Positions 14,695 through 62,252 of a stretch of DNA of 64,000 nt are shown piece by piece. Positions within the stretch are counted from its first letter, which is position 1. Every line of letters starts with the position of its first letter. The position numbers were made by a program, and so were the translations under genes. Source of the DNA: Cordylochernes scorpioides. Its lineage: Eukaryota > Arthropoda > Arachnida > Pseudoscorpiones > Chernetidae. The stretch is from NCBI GenBank assembly GCA_030710605.1, contig CP092864.1, forward strand, positions 141,363,368-141,427,367, given 5' to 3'. A model generated the notes under the pieces. That model saw only the letters and a program-made list of their open reading frames with translations, had not been told where the DNA came from and made no database searches.

Positions 14695-14900
14695 GATTCA
14701 TTTATATTCTTATTTATTATGAAAATAGAGTAATCCATATTTAAATCTTTAGTTAATAAAAAGGCATATATTGGATTGAATAAAATAATGTAATGCCTTG
14801 ACAAAGGTTGGCGTTCAGCCAACCGAAATGTTGGCAAATGAATCTTTTATTCAATCTAATATATGCCTTTTTATTATCTAAAGATTATTATTTATAAAAT
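14695..14900 (+). repeat. Foldback element with a hammerhead-like core
   Basis: Inverted arms (CTTTAGTTAATAAAAAGGCA at about 14747 and its complement at about 14862-14882) flank a hammerhead-like motif. Followed by ATGCCGGCCAGGTAAAC, a sequence also found beside the 26.4 kb foldback. Same family as the foldbacks at 17.6 and 61.0 kb. Probably a non-autonomous Penelope-like derivative. Confidence 0.55.
14795..14836 (+). ncRNA. Hammerhead ribozyme-like motif (variant core)
   Basis: Stem II is a perfect 7-bp pairing (GGTTGGC with GCCAACC, loop GTTCA) followed by GAAA. The upstream core reads TTGACAAA rather than CTGANGA, so the C3 and G8 positions differ from the consensus. Probably a decayed ribozyme. 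Similar motifs are at 17.64, 17.85, 61.07 and 61.13 kb. Confidence 0.45.
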
Positions 14901-17594: not shown

Positions 17595-17970
17595 TTTAAT
17601 TAAAAAGGCCTATATTGGATCAAAATATCATTTATTTTACCAATATTTCAGTTGGCTGAACGCCAACCTTTATCAAGGTGTTATAACATTTTTAACATTT
17701 TAAACATTTTGACACACTTGGCATATCCTGACCAGGAGCACATGTGCTTTACAGAAGGCAGAGCGCCATCTGGTGGAACAGAAATCAACTAAACATTGAT
17801 TTAGCCTGTTCCTTGATATTTGGCCAACTTTAAAATGTTATAACACCTTGATAAAGGTTGGCGTTCAGCCAACTGAAATATTGGTAAAATAAATAAAATT
17901 TTGATCCAATATATGCCTTTTTAATTAAAGATTTATCTATGGATTGCTCTATTTTCAAAAAAATATCTCT
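17595..17970. repeat. Foldback with paired hammerhead-like motifs
   Basis: Two inverted arms of roughly 95 bp (17600-17690 and 17840-17935) share TTAATTAAAAAGGC, GATCCAATATA and a hammerhead-like core in opposite orientations. Between them lies a part of the other hammerhead family (ATCCTGACCAGGAGCACATG, CAGAGCGCCATCTGGTGG). The same plan with a much shorter centre recurs at 61.0-61.2 kb. Confidence 0.6.
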
Positions 17971-18360: not shown

Positions 18361-18411
18361 TTGTCGAATCTATATATGGCGTGGATTATTATTAAATAAT
18401 ACGATAAATTC

Positions 18412-18730
18412 TATAAAATAACGCCAGGAGAAAATGATTTTTTATTAATCGACTACACGAGCTTTCGGGCAGTCACGCCCTTCAACTGGTAATGATACAT
18501 GATGGCAATAGGCCTTAAATAGGATTCCGTTTTTAAAGAGATATTTTCACATAGGAGAAAAATAATATAGGACGGCTAAAAAACAATTTAGTTAAAAGAT
18601 ATTTGCGAATATAAGCTATTATATAATATATTTATGTAACTATGCTAATCCTGTAATGCCGGTTGACAAATAAATGGTAGGTTTGTAATTGGCTAAAACA
18701 TGTGACTATATAATGAAGAGAGACTAGTAT
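18412..18730 (+). repeat. PLE left inverted repeat
   Basis: Complementary, with few differences, to 19466-19784. Contains the motif GAGCTTTCGGGCAGTCACGC, the complement of a hammerhead-like stem II and GAAA core. Confidence 0.88.
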
Positions 18731-18763
18731 AAAATTAATACAGTTAGAACGCTTACCAAGAGA

Positions 18764-19393
18764 TTGGTTACACATTGCTCCCTGCCCATTTTCAGATCAA
18801 TAGAGTTTGCTAACATTAAGAAACAACTTGCCCTCTCCCAATATCCACACCAGTTCATATATAAATATCAATACAACCCGGCCCATAAGAAACCCAATTT
18901 ACCCCATAGAAATACCTGCATCTTACCGTACTCAACACAATCCGCTGCAATATCTCACCTTCTTAAGCCTCATGGCATTAACACCTACTATACAAACAAT
19001 AGAAGCCTGGCCACCATTCTTAGACATCCAATTACCCGATTGCCGAGACCTGCCAGTGTTCAGTCATCGGGTGGCTCGGTCTACTCAGTCTCATGCAACG
19101 ATTGTAGTGCAACCTATATAGGTGAGACTGGTAGGTCCGTGGCCATCAGGATGACTGAGCATGGCAGGTGCGTCAATAACAAAGACAACAGGTCCCTCAT
19201 CTACAACCATATTCTTGATACAGGCCACTCTTTCGATTTAACTTCACCCACCACATTATACAATAACATCTCCAATAAATACCAAAGACTGATCATAGAA
19301 GCCATAGTATCCATATCAAAAAATAGCGTTAACCGACATATAGATTTACCTGCACAATATCAGGATATATGTAGTAACTTGAATAACCATTAA
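18764..19393 (+). CDS. PLE protein fragment with GIY-YIG endonuclease
   Basis: 209 residues open from the ATG; the parental protein is much longer and begins with an RT domain that is absent here. Residues 105-175 form a GIY-YIG nuclease: VYSVSCNDC, then TYIGETGRS, MTEHGRCV, YNHILDTGHSFDL and a later LIIEAIVS with the catalytic E. The CNDC and H residues fit the zinc-binding variant typical of Penelope endonucleases. The nuclease would nick target DNA for insertion. Lack of RT means this copy cannot reverse transcribe by itself. The start codon is only the first ATG in the remaining frame. Confidence 0.85.
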   Translation: MVTHCSLPIFRSIEFANIKKQLALSQYPHQFIYKYQYNPAHKKPNLPHRNTCILPYSTQSAAISHLLKPHGINTYYTNNRSLATILRHPITRLPRPASVQSSGGSVYSVSCNDCSATYIGETGRSVAIRMTEHGRCVNNKDNRSLIYNHILDTGHSFDLTSPTTLYNNISNKYQRLIIEAIVSISKNSVNRHIDLPAQYQDICSNLNNH

Positions 19394-19465: not shown

Positions 19466-19784
19466 ATACTAGTCTCTCTTCATTATATAGTCACATGTTT
19501 TAGCCAATTACAAACCTACCATTTATTTGTCAACCGGCATTACAGGATTAGCATAGTTACATAAATATATTATATAATAGCTTAGATTCGCAAATATCTT
19601 TTAACTAAATTGTTTTTTAGCCGTCCTATATTATTTTTCTCATATGTAAAAATATCTCTTTAAAAACGGAATCCTATTTAAGGCCTATTGCCATCATGTA
19701 TCATTACCAGTTGAAGGGCGTGACTGCCCGAAAGCTCGTGTAGTCGATTAATAAAAAATCATTTTCTCCTGGCGTTATTTTATA
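19466..19784 (-). repeat. PLE right inverted repeat
   Basis: Mirror of 18412-18730. Here the hammerhead-like motif reads on the plus strand: AGTTGAAGGGCG, then CTGCCCGAAAGCTCGTG at about 19709-19740. Stem II (GGGC/GCCC) is intact but the CTGANGA core is imperfect. Confidence 0.88.
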
Positions 19785-20006
19785 GTATTTATATTCCAAG
19801 GAGAAAGTTTCTATGTTTAAATAAATACGATAAATTAAATGCACAAATGATTATATTTATTAACTTACAAAACAAAGGGAGAGATATTTAACACATATCT
19901 TATTTTTTATATGTTTAAATTTAAAGAAATATAATAAACAAAACAAACAGTTCTATATAAAAAAAAAAGGCTTCAAGACAAATCTAATAACAACAACCAA
20001 TTTATA

Positions 20007-24398: not shown

Positions 24399-24616
24399 AA
24401 AACCTAAAGTACGGCCTTTTCCGTTAAGGACAAAGAAACCTTAACAGCTTAATTAGAGACATTTCCATAAAAAAAAAAAACGCATTCCAAACTTATTTGA
24501 TCTTGATACTTGTCATTTTTAACAACACACTTTCTGGGTTGTTATGTATATAATGTGATTGAATGAGAAAAATAGTGTTTTAAATATATATATGTTAATT
24601 TAAATAAAAAAAAAGC

Positions 24617-24910
24617 ATATCCTAACCACGTTCACATGAACTTTTTGATGGCAGGACGCCATCTGTTGAAACAGAAATCAACTAAACGTTGATTTAATCT
24701 GTTCCCTGATATTTAGCCCAACCCATTTTCTTGATAAAAACAAGAAAAGTCAATCACGAACGCGTTTCGGGATGTTGCCCCCCGTCAGCGTGGTGCAGAC
24801 TGTACCTCTACGATTCTTGAAAGGTCCAACCCCACCAGCGAGTGCAAGTAATCAAACGGGGCTTTGACACATTTGTAAGTGCAAAATCGAATTGCTTTTC
24901 ACATGTGTAG
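24617..24910. repeat. Hammerhead-bearing foldback family copy
   Basis: Shares CAGGACGCCATCTGTTG, the AGAAATCAACTAAACGTTGA segment and the ribozyme region with the copies at 37.1, 52.7 and 61.3 kb. Its ends are truncated. Confidence 0.65.
24754..24793 (-). ncRNA. Hammerhead ribozyme motif, one core change
   Basis: On the minus strand: CCACG, core CTGACGG (A9 changed to G), stem II with loop, GAA, the palindrome ACGCGT, T, then CGTGA. Same 40-nt plan as the intact copies at 52817 and 61435. The A9 change and a weaker stem II suggest decay. Confidence 0.6.
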
Positions 24911-28299: not shown

Positions 28300-28530
28300 A
28301 AAAAAAAACAATAGAAAAAATAAAAAATAAAAAGGTCAGGTGTTGATATTAAAAAACAAAGTTTACAGAAGGCAGAGCGCCATCTGGTGGAACAGAAATC
28401 AACTAGAAATTGGGTTGGCCAAATATCAGGGAACAGACTAAATCAATATTTAGTTGATTTCTGTTCCACTAGATGGCACTCTGCCTTCTGCAAAGCACAT
28501 GTGCTCCTGGTCAGTATATGCCTACTTTGT
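28300..28530. repeat. Palindromic copy of the hammerhead foldback family
   Basis: Arms CAGAAGGCAGAGCGCCATCT (from 28364) and its complement (to 28491) surround about 45 bp. The ribozyme part is absent. Followed by AGCACATGTGCTCCTGGTCA as at 52.9 kb. Confidence 0.65.
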
Positions 28531-28969
28531 TTATGTAGATGATAATGTAGTGTTCCAATTTAATAGAATACATACAAAAGCCTTTATTAGGTCTTATACA
28601 TGGATTTACCCCGCATTTATCTATTAAAAGAGAAATTTGGTCCCTTGAGTATCCTATTAGTCTCTAAATAACTGCTTCAACAAAGAAACATTATCTTCAA
28701 GATTTGCCAAACTTTAGGAAAGTGTACTTTAATCAGTTCCATTTCATCCCAACCATAAAAATAAAATACTTGAATGACAAAATAGTAAGTTGTAATTAAT
28801 TTTAAATAATCATTCTACATCTATTCTTTAATGATATTTTGGTTATATTCAATATTTGAACTTTTTTTTTTAACTCAAAGCCTCACCAACGAGTAGAGAT
28901 TCATTTGCTTCGTGTTCTGTTATCATAGGTGCTTCTTCTGGTACATTAAACCGTGAAATGTCTGTACCA

Positions 28970-32742: not shown

Positions 32743-32876
32743 TATACACGTACACACATTTGACACAATATATCGCTTTATTAAAAGAAAAATAAAGAGC
32801 TAAAGTTTGAATATTTCTATAAAAAAATGCCAAACCAATAAGGCCAATAGAAAGATTTAAAAGTATGACATATATA

Positions 32877-33236
32877 TCTATATATATAAAAATCAATGTT
32901 TGTATGTTTGTTTGTTTGTATGTCCGGTATACAAATTCGCAGTAGTTCACTAATTCAAACCAAAATTTCCATACATAGGTAAAAAAAAATACGGGGAAGA
33001 CGATAGGCTATATTTAAAAAAATATATATATCAATTATTAAAACTATATATTCAAATTATTCGACTTAGCTCACGAACAGCGACCTCTATCAAAGATTAG
33101 ATTAAATTATGCTGATGCAAACAAATAGATAATGCTAATAACAAACAATTATAAAAAAATCTTATCTAAATATATATCACTCGGGTAGATATGCACACGG
33201 GTCAATCCCGGGGCGAAGCCCGGGTCACCCGTCTAG
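32877..33236 (+). mobile_element. Non-autonomous Helitron
   Basis: Starts TCTATATATATAAAAATCAA, ends with the hairpin CCCGGGGCGAAGCCCGGG, then TCACCCGT and CTAG, and sits between A and T. Nearly identical copies are at 38024-38382 (-) and 61689-62045 (+). Confidence 0.88.
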
Positions 33237-33269
33237 TTCTATATATTCTCTCTTATTTCAATATAAATA

Positions 33270-36829: not shown

Positions 36830-37242
36830 TTTGTTCCACTAACAGATAATATTGGCAAGAAATTATATAACGGGAAGTATAAGAACGAAAGAGAAGAGTT
36901 AGAAAAAAGACACCTCGGAACTAAGGTGATTATAGAGAGTTAAAATGACAAGAAATTGGTGTCGTATTCGTCTTAAATACACCCACTCGACCTCATCTCA
37001 ACCATTCTTTGATAAATAGCTTTTTATATGCTTGGATTTATTTGAACAATCCTTTAGCGTATTTAAGCTGATTCATTACGATATATATATTAAAAATAAA
37101 GAAGGCATATCCTGATCAGGAGCATATGTGCTTTTTAGATGGCAGAGCGCCATCTAGTGGAACAGAAATCAACCAAACGTTGATTTAGCCTGTTTCCTGA
37201 TATTTGGCCATCCCATTTTATTGATAAATCAAGAAAAGCCAT

Positions 37243-37282
37243 CCACGAACACGTTTGGGGCTGTTGGCCTTTGTCAGCGTGG
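37243..37282 (-). ncRNA. Hammerhead ribozyme motif, decayed
   Basis: CCACG, core CTGACAA (G8 changed), then a shortened stem II and CAAA in place of GAAA, then ACGTGT, T, CGTGG. Two catalytic-core changes make activity unlikely. Confidence 0.55.
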
Positions 37283-37394
37283 AGCAGGCTGTACTACTGC
37301 GACCAAAAATGTTTTGGTCCCAGAGACTTCTTGAGAAACCAAGAAATGGGTATTTAAGGCCAAACTTGCGTAAATACGCTTAACCTAGCCTGCT

Positions 37395-37434
37395 CCACAC
37401 TGAAGAGGGCCAACAGCCCGAAACGCGTTCTTGG
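37395..37434 (+). ncRNA. Hammerhead ribozyme motif, intact core
   Basis: CCACA, core CTGAAGA, stem II GGGC-CAACA-GCCC, GAA, palindrome ACGCGT, T, CTTGG. All core positions fit the consensus (N7 = A). Two mismatches lie in stem I next to the core, so folding may be weak. Confidence 0.65.
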
Positions 37435-37584
37435 ATGGGTTAGGTTTATTTTTAAATTTTTATTCACAAATCTCTCTCTAGCTTTCGGGCACGGAAACCC
37501 TTTTAAAGGAGAAAAACTAGGAAACAATAAATCGCCAGAAGTATAATACTTTAAATATAATCAAATACTATTATATAAAAATAT

Positions 37585-37945: not shown

Positions 37946-38023
37946 GGGTTGAGACAAGGATAAGTCACCCAAGAGTTCCCCTCTTTGTTTCTCCAGGCAG
38001 GAGCAGCCAAATATATAAAAATA

Positions 38024-38382
38024 CTAGACGGATGACCCGGGCTTCGCCCCGGGATTGACCCGTGTGCATATCTACCCGAGTGATATATATTTAGATACGA
38101 TTTTTTAATATAATTGTTTGTTATTAGCATTATCTATTTGTTTGCATCAGCATAATTTAATCTAATCTTTGATAGAGGGCGCTGTTCGTGAGCTAAGTAG
38201 AATAATTTGAATATATAGTTTTAATAATTGATTTATATATTTTTTAAAATAGCCTATCGTCTTCCCCGTATTTTTTTTACCTATGTTAGGGGATTTTGGT
38301 TTGAATTAGTGAACTACTGCGAATTTGTATACCGGACATACAAACAAACAAACATACAAACATTGATTTTTATATATATAGA
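38024..38382 (-). mobile_element. Non-autonomous Helitron
   Basis: Minus-strand copy of the 32877-33236 element, with CTAG at 38024-38027 and the TC start at 38381-38382. 359 bp. Confidence 0.88.
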
Positions 38383-38499
38383 TAACTATTTCTATGCCCA
38401 AAAACTAGCGAGAGAGAGATTTGTGAATAAGAATTTTAAAAAGAAACCTAACCCTGACGGCTTGATATTTCTACCTTAAATATTGATACAAGGAATTAT

Positions 38500-52229: not shown

Positions 52230-52535
52230 ATTAAAGACAAAAGGCATATCATGAACGTTTAGTTGAATTTTATCCCACTAGATGGCAATATAAAATACTC
52301 ATGTGGGCGGTCATTAAGGTCTTTTTGTTTTGATGCAATGGTGAACAGGTGGCATTATGTGGATTGCCACAATACGAGGGCCATTAGCCCGAAACCATGG
52401 TCTCTAGGTGGACGCTTCTCAGTTTGCCAAAGCTGGTGTTGTGGCTTTGTCACCGACCTGATGCCGCTAGTTTGCGGCGACGGTCAATAGATGGCGTCTA
52501 GTTTTGACCACTATTTTGACGGGAGAGGCGACCCT
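52230..52535 (+). repeat. Partial foldback copy
   Basis: Combines CCACTAGATGGC (cf. the hammerhead foldbacks), ACGAGGGCCATTAGCCCGAA (hammerhead-like stem II and GAAA) and the right arm of the 50906 element (AAAGCTGGTGTTGTGGCTTT to GACGGGAGAGG). Confidence 0.5.
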
Positions 52536-52640: not shown

Positions 52641-52673
<33 letters not shown>

Positions 52674-52675
<2 letters not shown>

Positions 52676-52945
52676 CATATTCTGACCAGGAGCACATGTG
52701 CTTTTTAGATGGCAGAGCGCCACACATCTAGTGGAACATAAAACAACTAAGCATCAATTTAACCTGTTCCCTGATAGTTGGCCAACCTAATTTCTTGATT
52801 TATCAAGAAAAGTCATCCACGAACGCGTTTCGCGCTGTTGGCGCTCGTCAGCGTGGAGTAGGCTGTACCACTGCGACCAAAAAGATTTTTAGTCTCAGAG
52901 GCTTCTTTGTGCTCCTGGTCAGGATATGTCTTTTTATATTTAATA
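52674..52945. repeat. Hammerhead foldback, well-preserved ribozyme
   Basis: Inverted ends TCTGACCAGGAGCACATGTG and TGCTCCTGGTCAGGATATG enclose the family markers and an intact ribozyme motif (52817-52856). Confidence 0.72.
52817..52856 (-). ncRNA. Hammerhead ribozyme motif, intact
   Basis: Minus strand: stem I CCACG, core CTGACGA, stem II GCGC-CAACA-GCGC, GAA, palindromic stem III ACGCGT without a loop, T at the cleavage position, and CGTGG closing stem I. All conserved positions are present. Compared with 61435-61474, the second pair of stem II is C-G instead of G-C, so pairing is kept. A loop-less stem III suggests action as a dimer. Confidence 0.78.
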
Positions 52946-53142
52946 TCAACCCCTGACCTTTTTATTTTTTTTCCATTATTTTTTCACATATATATATGTA
53001 TAGACAAATGTAAAAGCATACATGTATGACAGCGCAAGTGTCCCTAGGAGGACATAGCACTTTAAATTTAAATAAACCCCTATATATATAAGAGTCAGAA
53101 CAAAAGCAATTTTTATTCAGTCATATAAAACGTCGTTACATT

Positions 53143-56100
53143 TCAATTGTTAGTGGGGGAGGGGGTACAATTAAAATCTATCTCTATAAAATATTTGTAA
53201 ATTTCGTATTTCTTCTTGTTTAAAATTCGACGTAATTCTGGATTTCCGCGGTCTAGGATGAAGTTGGCTGGGCTGAAGATATATAAGCGGTCGACAATCC
53301 GACATTCTTCAGTAGCTTCTTTTATTTTCTTTTTCGTAAATTCACACTCTAGGTATCGATGTAGTATGTCTGGAGATCCTCCGCACGCAGTGCAGGTGGG
53401 CCTTCCATTCCTGGTCGGGTGTGGCAGGGCTCTTAATTTCAGTCTCCAGGCGATATCGTCGTAGATGTTACGTTTTTTATGCCAGGATGGCGCAGTGTTG
53501 AAATTCCACTTTGCAGCTTTTTCTTCAGCGCGTTTAAAGTTAAAATTGGTCGATAAAATTATATTTCGTAGTGCGTTACTCTTTATACGTGAGAAAAGGC
53601 GTGATTCGTAAACGACGGGAAGATGCACGCAGGAAGAATGGTCTTGAAGTTTAAAAGTCGTGTTTTTCGTCTGGTTGTAAAACTCGGCAATTCGTTGTAG
53701 ATCGTTTCTGATATTTCGCGTGGCATGGGAAAATAGATCATTTGCCTCGCGCATTTCGTCGTTCGTATCTATAAACTCTTTCAGGCGTTTCAAGTTTCTT
53801 ATGCTGAAGACGGCAGAGTTCTGTAGATAAAGGCCGTGTAAGAGGCGGCATTTCGGTATAACGAGGTGTAAATAATCTTTTCGCGAAAGCTGCTTGAAGT
53901 CAATATTAAATTTATGAACGATGCTACGCCAGCTTGCTAAAATTTGTTTTCTTCGCGGTGAGAGAAATCCGTGTAGATCGTAATTAAAAAGATTGAAGTA
54001 GTTGGTCGCATTTTTGTTCTCAAATAGAAATTCGTTTTCGTTCTGATGTCCATTAATTTGCCTTTGTATACGTTTTAACGTGAATAAATCGCGTTGCGTG
54101 GCGAGGTGGAGCAAAGCGAGGCCGCCGTTCTCGATAGGTAAACAATTTATTGAGGAATTTGTCCAGGTTGTATTTAGGTATAGGGCGACATCAATATCTT
54201 TTTGTATATCGTTGAGGATTACGTCTTCAGGTAGAGTCGCGTTTATTTTATATGTGAATTTCGGTATCAATCTTTCGTTAATATATCGCGTCTTCTGTAT
54301 AAGCGAGAGCGACGAAATATGGGATTTAACAACACGCACCGCTTGTTGAAATTCTTCGCGCAGGTTTTCTTTCTCCGTTTTGAAGGGCGTTTTTGAGTTT
54401 TCAACTAAGATGCCAAGCACTTTGATTTGGTCTCTCCTCATCTTAATTTCCCTCGGAGTGTCGGTTCTGTTGCCCCAGCTGCCACACCACAGCCCTTTGC
54501 TTTTCCCAAAGTTTATATTTATGCCGGAGACCCGCTTAAAATCTTGGAGACAGGAGTATATTCGGTCGAAGTCGCTTTCGTCTCTAATTAAGAACACCAG
54601 GTCGTCGGCGTAAATGTGCGTCGTTGTCGTGGAGCTCAGTTTGTCTCGTAAGTGAAAGATTAAAGCCGTCGTGGAGATCGAGAACAGTACCGCCGACAGC
54701 CCGCAGCCCTGACGAACTCCCCTTGTCACTTGTATGGATGGAGAGGTTTCTTCATTTACGTCAATCTTAATTGCACTGTTGTTCAAGATTATCTTGATCC
54801 ATTTGATAAATATATTTGGTATACCGATTCTCTCAAGAGTCGCAATTAGGAAGTTTCTGTTGAGCGAGTCAAACGCCCTCTGTAGGTCGAGGACGACAAT
54901 CGCGAGGGGCGTGTTGAGGAGGTTTGCCGCGTAGACGCTGTATTCGATATCAGGGAGTATGTCGAATATTGATCTATTCATAATTGCATATTTTTGTTCA
55001 ATAGGAACAATTTGCGGGGAGTAGGGTTTAAGTTTTGCGAGTAATAATTTTGACAAGATTTTATAATCTGTGTTCATCATCGTGATAGGTCTCCATTCAC
55101 CCAACGTCTTTGGGCTCGGCTTCTTTGGTAGGAGAATCAGCCTCCCCACTCTCATATGTTCAGGTAATTCATCTTCCTCTTGAGCATTAGTAAATATCGT
55201 GAGAAGTAGATCTGCGGCGTCGTTCGGGTATTTTTTATAAAATTCCGCGGGAATCTTGTCTTCTCCAGCCATCTTTTTATTGGGAAGTTGCTTAATTGCA
55301 TTAATTATGTCGCCTCTCGTTATAAAGTGTTGTTCATCGAAGTTGAAGTCGATGTCGAGGCGCGGGATAGTATTTGTATACGTTACGATGTCGTTTAGAT
55401 TGATAGATTCGTCGGCTCTGGATTGATCGCGGTAGTGTTTAAAAATATATTTTAAAATATTTCGATTATCGGTCAGCAGTATGTCGTTCTCGTTAAAAAG
55501 CGAAGTAATAGCGGGCTTGTGACCCATCGGCCTTGGGACCGTATGCCTCAGACAAGCATTAGCAACTTCCAAAATAAGTCTTCTTATACATCTCCATTTA
55601 GCACTTGCATTTAAGTTCATATAGTTCGAATAAAAGTTTTCAAGTTCAAAAGCATATATGTCATCGAAGAGGCGGGAGGTAAATATTCGTCTGTCAATTT
55701 TTCGCGCTAACTTCATTCTCTCGGTGCTTAAACGGGCGATGATAGCGTTGTGGTCAGATAGCGAGTAAGACAATGTTTTGCATTCTTCCAAGTTTCTTAT
55801 TAAATCGGGCGTAGTTAAGATATAGTCGATGCGTGTTTCAAAAGGTGTGCCGTTCACAGTCGCGAAGTGCGTGACCCCGTGAATTCCCGGATTAAGATAA
55901 CTAAATGCGTCGATTAGGTTATATTTTCTTTTAAAATCATTTAGCATTTTTCTCTTTCTCTGTGAGTCCGTTCTACCAGGCTTATCTCGTATGTTAAAGT
56001 CTCCAAGTATAATTTTGGACGTGTCGTTCGGGAAATTTTCAATATATCGTTCAATCAAGGTAAAGTCGTTAAAAGCTTCATCCGGATTGTGCGTAACATG

Positions 56101-56457
56101 TACATTTATTAGTAAAACGAGTTTTCTTTTCAAGGTGCATTCGATCGCGCAAATCTTTCCGCTTTTGATAACTTTGAAGTTTTCGTTAGGAATTGTGCGA
56201 TTTAGAATAATAAATTGTCCGCTTCCGAAATTGCTTTTTTTGTTTGCATATATGTCGTAGTTTTCAAATTCTTTTCTCGATAATAATAGGTCTTTGTTTG
56301 TTTCTTGTATAGCGTAAATGTCTGCTTTAAGCTTCTTCGTCCATTTGCTGAAGTAATCTTCTCTTTCTCTTCCAGATATACCGCGGGCGTTGAGCGTGAT
56401 TATTTCTAAAAATTCATGTTCAGAAACGTCGAAGGATGGCTGAGAACAGTCCAACAT
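53143..56457 (-). CDS. Tx1-like LINE ORF2: endonuclease and reverse transcriptase
   Basis: 1104 residues with no stop. Residues 15-240 are an apurinic-type endonuclease: N23 in LNARG, E52 in IQET, GDFN, RIDYILTT, and SLSDHNAI. The RT domain (about 420-720) shows GRLILLPKK, WRPITMMNTDYKILSKLL (the NTDYKI wording is typical of the L1/Tx1 branch), VVLDLQRAFDSLN, GVRQGCGLSAVLFSI and catalytic YADD at 616-619. A C-terminal zinc cluster (CTACGGSPDILHRYLEC) lies near residue 1021. The protein nicks target DNA and primes cDNA synthesis there. It starts 198 bases after the end of the ORF1 continuation. All key residues seen are intact, so it may be functional. Confidence 0.93.
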   Translation of the reverse strand: MLDCSQPSFDVSEHEFLEIITLNARGISGREREDYFSKWTKKLKADIYAIQETNKDLLLSRKEFENYDIYANKKSNFGSGQFIILNRTIPNENFKVIKSGKICAIECTLKRKLVLLINVHVTHNPDEAFNDFTLIERYIENFPNDTSKIILGDFNIRDKPGRTDSQRKRKMLNDFKRKYNLIDAFSYLNPGIHGVTHFATVNGTPFETRIDYILTTPDLIRNLEECKTLSYSLSDHNAIIARLSTERMKLARKIDRRIFTSRLFDDIYAFELENFYSNYMNLNASAKWRCIRRLILEVANACLRHTVPRPMGHKPAITSLFNENDILLTDNRNILKYIFKHYRDQSRADESINLNDIVTYTNTIPRLDIDFNFDEQHFITRGDIINAIKQLPNKKMAGEDKIPAEFYKKYPNDAADLLLTIFTNAQEEDELPEHMRVGRLILLPKKPSPKTLGEWRPITMMNTDYKILSKLLLAKLKPYSPQIVPIEQKYAIMNRSIFDILPDIEYSVYAANLLNTPLAIVVLDLQRAFDSLNRNFLIATLERIGIPNIFIKWIKIILNNSAIKIDVNEETSPSIQVTRGVRQGCGLSAVLFSISTTALIFHLRDKLSSTTTTHIYADDLVFLIRDESDFDRIYSCLQDFKRVSGININFGKSKGLWCGSWGNRTDTPREIKMRRDQIKVLGILVENSKTPFKTEKENLREEFQQAVRVVKSHISSLSLIQKTRYINERLIPKFTYKINATLPEDVILNDIQKDIDVALYLNTTWTNSSINCLPIENGGLALLHLATQRDLFTLKRIQRQINGHQNENEFLFENKNATNYFNLFNYDLHGFLSPRRKQILASWRSIVHKFNIDFKQLSRKDYLHLVIPKCRLLHGLYLQNSAVFSIRNLKRLKEFIDTNDEMREANDLFSHATRNIRNDLQRIAEFYNQTKNTTFKLQDHSSCVHLPVVYESRLFSRIKSNALRNIILSTNFNFKRAEEKAAKWNFNTAPSWHKKRNIYDDIAWRLKLRALPHPTRNGRPTCTACGGSPDILHRYLECEFTKKKIKEATEECRIVDRLYIFSPANFILDRGNPELRRILNKKKYEIYKYFIEIDFNCTPSPTNN

Positions 56458-56655
56458 CCAAAAATAAAAAATAAATAAAGTAAGAAAGAATTTAAACTGG
56501 TAAAGGAGAGTATATAAAGGAAGGTAAAATAAAATAAATCGTGTTAGTGTAAAAGGTAAAAATATACAAATAAATAAAAACGAGAAGGTAAGATAAAGAA
56601 GGTAAAAAAAAAGAGGGTAAAAGGAATCGTGATTAAAAAAAAAAGAGAAAGTAGG

Positions 56656-57255
56656 TTAAGTGAGGTTTTCTTCCTCCATTGTTTTCAAGAGATCCCTGAT
56701 TCTACTATAGTATTTTTGATAGACTTTCTTTTCATCTGGCTTCACTTTGTGCCAGGCATTCTTTCGTTGACGAATTTCTTCGCGGAAAGTTGTGAGGTCT
56801 TGCTTTAAGTTGGGGTGCTTGTCCATCTGTTCAATAATCTTGGTTTTTCTCGTGCGACCAGATTTACAACAAAGAGCCTTGAGGATCTTCACCATTCTAG
56901 GGTTTAACTCCGGTTCACAAAATTCAGATTCGCGCTCGAGTTGTGAGGATGCCACAGAAAGTTCTGAGAGCGCTACAGATTCGTTATCCTCTGATAGTTC
57001 GTCCTGCCCTCGCCTGGGAAAATCATCCTCGCTAGGCAAACCCTGCAGGATGTCTTCATTCGTAGGTTCCTGCGCTTCTTTAGGTTCTCCTTCTTGCATT
57101 GGTTCTACATTCTTGGGTAGGACCTCAGTAGGAGGGTTGGACTTTGGTCTCTTTCCGAGGTCGTTTAAAGCATAAGGGGGTGTTGGGACGTCAGTTAATT
57201 CTGCTAAGATTCTTTTTCTGCTCGTGGACTTTGTCTCTGGGGGTATGTTCATCAC
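56656..57255 (-). CDS. Tx1-like LINE ORF1 continuation (frame-shifted)
   Basis: 199 residues from a possible ATG: basic start (KSTSRKRILAEL), acidic middle (EDDFPRRGQDELSEDNESVA), and a C-terminal DKHPNLKQDLTTFREEIR region ending in MEEENLT. It overlaps the upstream ORF1 frame by 65 bases, in the +1 frame relative to it. The overlap begins near a run of five C. Most simply this is the C-terminal part of ORF1, separated by a 1-base change in the C run. A separate protein or ribosomal frameshifting are alternatives. Confidence 0.6.
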   Translation of the reverse strand: MMNIPPETKSTSRKRILAELTDVPTPPYALNDLGKRPKSNPPTEVLPKNVEPMQEGEPKEAQEPTNEDILQGLPSEDDFPRRGQDELSEDNESVALSELSVASSQLERESEFCEPELNPRMVKILKALCCKSGRTRKTKIIEQMDKHPNLKQDLTTFREEIRQRKNAWHKVKPDEKKVYQKYYSRIRDLLKTMEEENLT

Positions 57256-58102
57256 CTTCAGGTGGTGTCGGGACTGTAGTTGGAGTTCCTTCTAACATGT
57301 CGACGGTGACAAGTTGAGTTACGGTATCCCTGATATTTTTGTTGAAGGGACATTTATCTTTTTTGTGGCCGTGGCGCCTGCAATCTGCGCAGATCACATC
57401 CTCACCGACATAGATGCGGAATGATCTGTTCATATAATTTATAATGATCAATGCTGGCATGTCAGTCGAATCTTTTTTCTTAAATACGACCTCTCTCCTC
57501 AGGGATGACAGGTGTTTTAGTAAGGGGTTATCCGTGGGGAAGGGCAGGGGGCGGATGGAGATGGTCTGCCCATATGGCTCAAGGGCCTTGGCGATGTCTG
57601 CATCCTGGATAAACGCCAGGACACCTGATAAAATATATTTTTTAGGCACGTTGAAAAGCGGCGTAGGAAAAATTTTCGTTTTTTGCACCTCAAACCCATT
57701 ATTGATTAGGATTTGGGCGAGTTCTCCGTTGGCCACTGAGACGATCGCCTGGCCATTGATTTTTCCCACTGAGTGGATATTTTCATACCCGACAACCGCT
57801 GCAATTCCAGCCAGGTGTTCTTCAGCGGTGGAATTTGGTAGGCTTTGAAATTGTATAGCGGAATGAATATTTCCACTTCTTTTTTCATAAGTCGTTTTTC
57901 TCAATTCATCGTGCTTCTTTCTTTCTTCAATAGAGAAATGACGTTTTGGGGCATGCAAATTTTGTGAATTTGGATTTTTTGAAGATGATTGTGAAGGATG
58001 AATTTTCACCGTTTCATTAGGAGATGAGCTTGATGGGATGTGATTACTTGATGAGGTGGATGGCGAATCAGATGAAGCAACGACCGGCTTGGCCGTTGCC
58101 AT
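57191..58102 (-). CDS. Tx1-like LINE ORF1 (RNA-binding, CCHC knuckle)
   Basis: 303 residues. A Ser/Pro/Asn-rich N terminus (residues 1-65) is followed by a folded region (residues 65-235) that looks like an RRM-type domain (IVSVANGELAQILINNGFEV, KKYILSGVLAFIQDADIAKA). A zinc knuckle CADCRRHGHKKDKC (C-X2-C-X4-H-X4-C) lies near residues 239-252. ORF1 proteins of this group coat the LINE RNA. Start chosen at the first ATG, MATAKPVVASSD. It ends in the overlap with 56656-57255. Confidence 0.8.
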   Translation of the reverse strand: MATAKPVVASSDSPSTSSSNHIPSSSSPNETVKIHPSQSSSKNPNSQNLHAPKRHFSIEERKKHDELRKTTYEKRSGNIHSAIQFQSLPNSTAEEHLAGIAAVVGYENIHSVGKINGQAIVSVANGELAQILINNGFEVQKTKIFPTPLFNVPKKYILSGVLAFIQDADIAKALEPYGQTISIRPLPFPTDNPLLKHLSSLRREVVFKKKDSTDMPALIIINYMNRSFRIYVGEDVICADCRRHGHKKDKCPFNKNIRDTVTQLVTVDMLEGTPTTVPTPPEGDEHTPRDKVHEQKKNLSRIN

Positions 58103-58312
58103 GACAATGATGCAAAGCTACAACTTGTAGCTTTGCTAATTTATGAAAAATAGAAAATTTTAAACTTGATGAAAATTTATGAAGTATGAATTGAAATGAT
58201 GCCCGAACTTAGGCGAACAAGATGATATATATTAGGTTAAATAAACTTAACTTTAGAAAGCGAAAAAGGCGAAATACACGGAGCTCGCGCGACGCGTGGC
58301 CGCACGGTCAGT

Positions 58313-60999: not shown

Positions 61000-61225
61000 T
61001 TGAAAATAGAGCAATCCATAGATAAATCTTTAATTAAAAAGGCATATATTGGATCAAAATATCATTTATTTTACCAATATTTCAGTTGGCCGAACGCCAA
61101 CCTTTATCAAGGTGTTATAACATTTTAAAGTGTGACACCTTGATAAAGGTTGGCGTTCAGCCAACTGAAATATTGGTAAAATAAATGATATTTTGATCCA
61201 ATATATGCCTTTTTAATTAAATATG
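61000..61225. repeat. Compact foldback with paired hammerhead-like motifs
   Basis: Arms of roughly 90-95 bp (about 61030-61120 and 61130-61222) share TTAATTAAAAAGGCATATAT and a motif with stem II GGTTGGC/GCCAAC and GAAA, in opposite orientations (61073-61115 minus, 61134-61178 plus). The core reads TTGATAAA. Same family as 17595-17970. Confidence 0.65.
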
Positions 61226-61269
61226 TATGTGTGAAAAAACAATGAAAAATAAAAAATATGAAAAGGGTC

Positions 61270-61675
61270 AGGTCCATATTAAAAATAAAAGAAGGCATAT
61301 CCTGACCAGTCTCACATAAGCATTTCTAGATGGCAGAACGCCATCTAGTGGAACAAAAACAAACTAAACGTTTATTTAACTTGCTACTTGATATTTAGCC
61401 AACCCAAATTTCTTGATAAATCAAGAAAAGCCATCCACGAACGCGTTTCGGGCTGTTGGCCCTCGTCAGCGTGGTGCAGACTGTACCTTTACGACCAAAA
61501 GTTGGTCAAAGAGGCTTCCTGAGAAATCAAGAATTTGGTATTTAAGGCCAAGTTTGTGTGAAATACGCATTTCATGTGAAAAAAGCAATATAAATGAAGA
61601 AATGCTAAAAGGAAATCTAGAAATGCTCATGTGAGCCTGGTCAGAATATGCCTATTTTATTTTTAATATGTATAC
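61270..61675. repeat. Hammerhead foldback, longest copy
   Basis: Terminal inverted arms AAGGCATATCCTGACCAGTC and AGCCTGGTCAGAATATGCC enclose the CGCCATCTAGTGG block, TTGATAAATCAAGAAAAGCC, an intact ribozyme motif and a roughly 170-bp unique part. No protein. Confidence 0.75.
61435..61474 (-). ncRNA. Hammerhead ribozyme motif, intact
   Basis: Minus strand: CCACG, core CTGACGA, stem II GGGC-CAACA-GCCC, GAA, palindrome ACGCGT, T, CGTGG. 40 nt, all core positions conserved. Stem II differs from the 52817 copy by a compensatory pair swap. Predicted cleavage after the T that follows ACGCGT. Confidence 0.8.
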
Positions 61676-61688
61676 ACTTGTATATATA

Positions 61689-62045
61689 TCTATATATATA
61701 AAAATCAATGTTTGTATGTTTGTTTGTTTGTATGTCCGGTATACAAATTCGCAGTAGTTCACTAATTCAAACCAAAATTTCCATACATAGGTAAAAAAAT
61801 ACGGGGAAGACGATAGGCTATTTTAAAAACATATATAAATCAATTATTAAAACTATATATTCAAATTATTCTACTTAGCTCACGAACAGCGCCCTCTATC
61901 AAAGATTAGATTGAATTATGCTGATGCAAACAAATAGATAATGCTAATAACAAACAATTATTTAAAAATCTTATCTAAATATATATCACTCGGGGAGATA
62001 TGCACACGGGTCAATCCCGGGGCGAAGCCTGGGTCACCCGTCTAG
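61689..62045 (+). mobile_element. Non-autonomous Helitron
   Basis: TCTATATATATAAAAATCAA start, hairpin CCCGGGGCGAAGCCTGGG, CTAG at 62042-62045. Third copy of the 32877-33236 family; 357 bp. Confidence 0.88.
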
Positions 62046-62252
62046 TATGTTATAATAGGAAAAAAGAAAATATTTTTCTGTTTGATTTTTGATAATTAGT
62101 TATATAGAATTAATACTTGATGCTGATTATTTTGAGAATAGAGATATTTGTTGAGCAGTCGTGGCAATGATTAAATAAAATCAGTTATCAAAATAGATTT
62201 AATTGATCTTATGAAATATATGAAAACATGGTTTGATAAAAGTAATGCCTGG

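What the first reader, a model, noticed from the sequence alone, without database searches (positions are those of the whole stretch)
61435..61474. Minimal hammerhead ribozymes with a compensatory stem change between copies
The copies at 61435-61474 and 52817-52856 (both minus) have all conserved hammerhead positions: CTGACGA, GAA, and an A-T closing pair of stem III before the cleavage base. Stem II is GGGC/GCCC in one and GCGC/GCGC in the other, a pair swap that keeps pairing. A third copy (37395-37434, plus) has an intact CTGAAGA core. Stem III is the loop-less palindrome ACGCGT, so a single copy would fold poorly while a dimer would fold well. Penelope-like elements and retrozymes are known to carry such minimal hammerheads. 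Seen directly: motifs and covariation. Inferred: activity and dimer action.
Basis: partly seen in the sequence, partly recalled or inferred. Interest (0 to 1): 0.8.

Follow-up and report, generated by a model that had tools for sequence, protein, structure and literature searches.

The report
Hammerhead ribozyme elements spread by Penelope
Small genomic repeats carry a tiny RNA-cutting ribozyme that probably works only in pairs, and their ends suggest that they are copied and inserted by the enzyme of a Penelope-type retrotransposon, which makes an open question about such elements testable.

Summary
The motifs are real. The copies at 61435-61474 and 52817-52856 (-) are full minimal type I hammerheads, the only two in the window to pass a strict descriptor; 300 simulated windows gave none. 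Exact genome counts are 8962 GCGC/GCGC and 916 GGGC/GCCC against 80 + 75 half-swapped stem II versions: pairing is kept, mainly as a difference between subfamilies.

The ribozyme sits in a 349-nt unit that repeats head to tail. Related or separate units (338 and 319 nt) also carry minimal hammerheads with a loop-less palindromic stem III. Ends fall at two sites 47 nt apart, at an RNA hairpin; inverted copies have one end at each (27 of 28 with both ends classed). The local Penelope-like element does the same (6 of 6 pairs). That is a Penelope 'tail' signature, so these are most likely non-autonomous retrozyme-like elements inserted by Penelope machinery, a link so far proposed only. Cleavage, dimer action and circular RNA are inferred. 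Against: the third copy has a damaged stem I, Rfam misses every copy at its own threshold, and derivation from an unseen Penelope element's pseudo-LTR is not excluded.

The parts
61435..61474 (-). intact minimal hammerhead, stem II GGGC/GCCC, stem III ACGCGT, cut expected after GTT
61232..61669 (-). element around it: inverted copy, one end at u191 and one at u237 of the unit
52817..52856 (-). intact minimal hammerhead, stem II GCGC/GCGC
52656..52986 (-). element around it: inverted copy, ends u191 and u237; its edge lies 157 bp past the stop of a LINE ORF and is a separate insertion
37395..37434 (+). third copy: core intact, stem I with two mismatches
37243..37282 (-). decayed hammerhead facing away from the third copy (head to head)
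37087..37456 (.). inverted element holding both 37-kb hammerheads
24754..24793 (-). decayed hammerhead, A9 changed, stem II GGGG/TCCC still pairing
24593..24813 (-). partial unit around it
28303..28532 (.). unit fragments in both orientations, without hammerhead
17720..17828 (-). unit fragment without hammerhead
52374..52408 (+). remnant of a family B hammerhead (stem III ACCATGGT), core start lost
18728..19393 (+). 5'-truncated ORF of a Penelope-like element; family abundant in this genome (150 matches scored of 52163 first-look candidates). Naming rests on motif and anatomy: Pfam gave no family for it
18404..18730 (-). inverted pseudo-LTR of that element, end without tail
19466..19792 (+). 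pseudo-LTR of that element; a tail of about 30 nt follows it. Its hammerhead-like motif is non-canonical (TTGAAGG for CTGANGA)

Best explanation
The repeats are non-autonomous, retrozyme-like retroelements. Each unit of about 350 nt has one minimal hammerhead, several hairpins and a Penelope-type start region for reverse transcription. Transcripts of tandem units would be cut by hammerheads acting in pairs, since stem III (ACGCGT) has no loop and can form fully only between two copies; a ligated single-unit circle would then not recut itself. A Penelope-like enzyme acting in trans would copy circular or multimeric RNA from one of two starts at the hairpin and insert it at AT-rich DNA, either from one strand (direct copies, mostly without tail) or from both (head-to-head copies, one end with tail, one without). 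Shown: motif, covariation, tandem unit, two end sites, their asymmetry, and the same anatomy in the local Penelope-like element. Inferred: cleavage, need for a dimer, circular RNA, trans action.
For: Pairing kept genome-wide: 8962 and 916 paired against 80 and 75 half-swapped. Family B has other stem I pairs, paired in 9 or 10 of 10 copies at each position. Tandem units of 349-353 nt: 25 of the first 100 copies; five intact hammerheads 350 bp apart in one array. Mixed ends in inverted copies: A 27 of 28, A2 6 of 7 and B 3 of 3 adjacent pairs (read off by eye), Penelope-like element 6 of 6. The inner end lies in the loop of a hairpin in A, A2, B and the Penelope-like element; between A and A2 two stem pairs change on both sides. 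15 of 47 direct copies are longer than one unit, one of them by 1 nt only. Published: the Penelope tail is the stretch between two RT starts, and both strands are cut and extended; an inverted pLTR with an optional tail at one of the two is typical.
Against: No cleavage, circle or trans activity was tested. Nine of 37 inverted A elements have an end outside both classes and one has two tails; A2 L008 has both ends at the inner site, and so has a further A2 locus (L001/L006/L007, near-identical) whose two arms lie 229 bp apart. Most direct copies show only one end class and no opposite arm. Target duplications are hard to tell in AT-rich flanks: 24 of 36 against 39% of mismatched pairs. No sequence similarity to the local Penelope pLTR. 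In all four pairs tested, another dimer fold is predicted to be more stable than the hammerhead dimer. HHR-dead mutants of an Anolis Penelope still insert in vitro, and its start sites did not differ between strands.
Confidence: 0.72

Rival explanations
1. The unit is the pseudo-LTR of a Penelope-like element multiplied without its ORF (an internal-deletion derivative); tandem transcripts serve as template and no circular RNA is involved.
For: Same order of parts as in the local Penelope pLTR (hammerhead-like motif, hairpin, tail). Known Penelope pLTRs carry minimal hammerheads and occur in tandem. 5' ends do not mark the ribozyme cut.
Against: No similarity to the local pLTR, and no unit in the 110 loci L006-L115 was seen interrupted by a Penelope ORF; five distinct loci do contain pieces similar to the endonuclease, so the test is weak.
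Confidence: 0.33
2. The motif is a relic: the elements spread without using it, and its pairing is inherited from old masters.
For: Single copies decay with one-sided changes; an Anolis Penelope inserts without ribozyme activity in vitro.
Against: At least three families keep different but paired stems, the core and a palindromic stem III.
Confidence: 0.12
3. A foldback DNA transposon (MITE) with terminal inverted repeats that happens to hold a hammerhead.
For: Inverted ends in 37 of 90 mapped elements.
Against: 47 of 90 are direct; units tandem with fixed period; arms of variable length and always head to head; ends at two different sites.
Confidence: 0.02
4. A ribozyme in the 3' UTR of the LINE at 53143-58117.
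For: Same strand, 157 bp past the stop.
Against: The element has its own two ends, and its family is inserted at many other places.
Confidence: 0.01

Closest known systems
Metazoan non-LTR retrozymes (PMC7229834; passages and Discussion read)
   Same: Small unit (170-400 nt there), one type I hammerhead per unit, head-to-tail tandem copies, non-autonomous
   Different: Minimal hammerhead with loop-less palindromic stem III; Penelope-type ends and inverted copies; no circular RNA data here
Minimal hammerheads of Penelope pLTRs and Terminons (PMC7761336, passages; Cervera 2014 and Lunse 2017 known only through citations)
   Same: Type I, helix III almost absent, dispersed in thousands, proposed to act as dimers
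   Different: Here the motif sits in ORF-less units of fixed period, and the local Penelope-like element has a non-canonical motif
Penelope-like elements (PMC11167929, main text read; PMC3846280, passages)
   Same: Two RT starts with a tail between them, hairpin at the start, head-to-head inverted copies, AT-rich targets
   Different: No RT or endonuclease ORF in the unit; no sequence similarity to the local one; tail of 47 nt against 30-40

Membership tests
Hammerhead ribozyme, type I (minimal) | Conserved core: CUGANGA, GAA, A15.1-U16.1, H17 | tested here: met
   motif definition recalled
Hammerhead ribozyme, type I (minimal) | Stems I and II conserved as pairs | tested here: met
Hammerhead ribozyme, type I (minimal) | Stem III | tested here: inconclusive
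   six pairs possible between two copies, not within one; energies do not single out this dimer
Hammerhead ribozyme, type I (minimal) | Self-cleavage | not testable with these tools
   needs the bench
Metazoan retrozyme | Small non-coding unit with a hammerhead, in tandem | tested here: met
Metazoan retrozyme | Circular RNA | not testable with these tools
   no RNA data
Penelope-like element (autonomous) | ORF with RT and GIY-YIG endonuclease | tested here: not met
   unit of 349 nt has no long ORF; so not filed as a Penelope-like element
Insertion by Penelope machinery | Two end sites, tail on one of two inverted ends, head-to-head arms | tested here: met
   with the exceptions given
Insertion by Penelope machinery | Short target site duplication | tested here: inconclusive
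   clear in some (L019 15 bp by eye; L091, L066, L071); overall 24 of 36 against 39% of mismatched pairs

The most novel reading that the evidence does not exclude
A division of labour: dimer-only ribozymes cut tandem transcripts and leave stable single-unit circles, and a Penelope enzyme inserts these in trans by priming both DNA strands, one strand starting at the outer (tail) site and the other at the inner site of the same RNA hairpin.
Probability: 0.3. Interest if true: 0.8.

Novelty: new variant of a known kind. Interest (0 to 1): 0.6.

Why it matters
What moves the ribozyme-bearing retrozymes of animals is an open question; the 2020 paper proposes Penelope-like elements from shared features and co-occurrence. 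Here three kinds of unit carry a Penelope insertion signature, so the proposal can be tested at the bench. A ribozyme that works only in multimers would also offer an answer to that paper's puzzle of why the circles are not reopened. The near-rule of one end with tail and one without is a constraint on how Penelope inserts.

Tried and rejected
Rfam at gathering threshold found only a U6 gene. One scan of viral contigs found no match. The LINE 3' UTR and MITE readings were dropped (see rivals). Clustering of 5' ends at the ribozyme cut, expected if linear cut monomers were the template, was not found: 1 of 47 direct copies starts near it, and the 30-mer starting at the cut occurs 18776 times against 16602 for one starting 5 nt upstream, a difference that CpG decay could explain; the sample was chosen to hold an intact core, so it cannot see copies that start at the cut. 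Similarity of the unit to the local Penelope pLTR: only short chance-level matches. Whole-element folds are very stable, which inverted repeats explain. One search misaligned family B and was replaced. In one search a frame check of L042 used the wrong frame and is not used.

Orientation: within 1000 bp, neighbours in the first 100 places shown were divergent / convergent 5/0, 13/0 (104), both; 12/0 (116), 9/0 (117), 7/1 (121); the list holds one convergent pair, seen by eye. Lists 44, 104 and 114 overlap.

Full report
Observation. The two minus-strand motifs are as described. A strict hammerhead descriptor finds only these two in the window and none in 300 Markov simulations. The third copy has the core but a damaged stem I. 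Rfam models do not reach their cut-offs.

Genome scale. The window lies in an unnamed assembly of 2.62 Gb in 24 contigs. The pattern CTGANGANNNNCAACANNNNGAAACGCGTT occurs 15031 times, its reversed control never. Exact 30-mers: GCGC/GCGC 8962, GGGC/GCCC 916, GCGC/GCCC 80, GGGC/GCGC 75. In the first 100 listed copies the second stem II pair is C-G in 79, G-C in 15, and other in 6. Pairing is thus kept where subfamilies differ, while other changes are mostly one-sided, as expected for copies decaying after insertion. Other intact versions: loop CAAAA 4037, A2 with GUC 9777, and family B with stem I CTAGA/TCTAG and stem III ACCATGGT 8774. All have a loop-less, self-complementary stem III. A looser pattern that also takes in other Penelope-like hairpins gave 208618 against 27083 for its reversed control.

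The element. L061 carries two hammerheads 349 bp apart in head-to-tail units. Of the first 100 places of a downstream pattern, 25 have a same-strand neighbour 349-353 bp away, 13 neighbour pairs are head to head and none is tail to tail. L127 shows two intact hammerheads from an array of five with period 350. A2 neighbours are mostly 338-339 bp apart, B neighbours 319 (3 of 3). A and A2 units are 68% identical. I mapped 87 distinct loci and three window elements onto the A unit: 37 inverted, 47 direct, 6 complex. Of the 47 direct ones, the 3' end is at u191 in 30, at u238 in 7 and elsewhere in 10; 15 are longer than one unit, so their template was multimeric or circular, or their source a tandem array.

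The Penelope signature. Of the 37 inverted elements, 28 have both outer ends in one of the two classes: 27 have one of each, one has two tails, none has two without; 9 have an end elsewhere. If ends were drawn independently at even odds, 27 of 28 or more would have p about 1e-7. The window's Penelope-like element and five further pairs, chosen by eye as short inverted pairs from the 150 rows, have one end with a tail and one without in 6 of 6. In both kinds the inner end lies in the loop of a hairpin and the tail runs through its 3' strand. A2 and B behave alike: 6 of 7 and 3 of 3 adjacent pairs are mixed (classes read by eye); L008 has two inner ends, as has a separate A2 locus (L001, L006, L007) whose arms are not adjacent. 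Published work defines the Penelope tail as the stretch between two RT starts and shows cutting and extension of both strands (PMC11167929, main text), and describes a tail as optional at one of the inverted pLTRs and head-to-head copies as the most frequent (PMC3846280, passages). The near-strict one-of-each pattern is what these counts add. The Anolis work saw no difference in start site between strands in vitro, which does not predict it.

Mechanism. Two 46-nt hammerheads can form a joint fold of -31.5 to -32.7 kcal/mol sharing a six-pair stem III, against -14.6 to -14.9 for the best, non-hammerhead fold of one copy; but in all four pairs another dimer fold is predicted to be more stable by 2.9 to 7.4. 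Energy alone therefore does not prove dimer action. Tandem arrays supply paired ribozymes within one transcript. Insertion 5' ends do not mark the cut, which fits circles or uncut multimers as template.

What is known. Minimal hammerheads without helix III are described as dispersed by thousands in animal genomes, partly in Penelope pLTRs, and as possibly dimeric (PMC7761336, passages). Animal retrozymes are 170-400 nt tandem units, and Penelope-like elements were proposed, not shown, as their mobilisers (PMC7229834). My literature searches (listings only, apart from the papers named) showed no title or abstract start reporting Penelope-type ends on retrozymes; most subscription journals are not held, so this is weak evidence of novelty.

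Verdict. Real, and a new variant of a known kind: minimal-hammerhead, retrozyme-like units with a Penelope insertion signature, of three kinds in one genome. Activity, circles and trans action are inferred. After re-checking, confidence was set at 0.72 because of the A2 exceptions.

Noticed in passing
window 61332-61351 (-); unit position u118 in L061: The unit holds CCACTAGATGGCGCTCTGCC, which resembles the insect CTCF motif as I recall it; a repeat with thousands of copies could spread such sites.
   Followed up: no
G000; L002, L004, L005: Very many CTGAAGATGGTAACA...TGTTACCGAAAC hairpins with one extra base after A9: probably other Penelope-type hammerhead relatives.
   Followed up: no
window 61000-61233, 17595-17936, 14712-14886: Inverted-repeat elements with TTGATAAAGGTTGGCGTTCGGCCAACTGAAA, which looks like another decayed hammerhead-like hairpin.
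   Followed up: no
window from 47382: A 32-bp tandem satellite (79 registers of a 300-nt window at 32-bp steps).
   Followed up: no
window 53143-58117 (-): LINE with an open 1170-codon frame (endonuclease and reverse transcriptase by Pfam) and two upstream frames.
   Followed up: partly
L045: By eye, an ATG right after hammerhead stem I opens a frame of about 35 codons in some units; perhaps a remnant of a Penelope ORF start.
   Followed up: no
window 38018-38384, 32870-33237, 61687-62051: Three copies of a repeat that looks Helitron-like (label from memory); the 61-kb element lies next to one of them.
   Followed up: no
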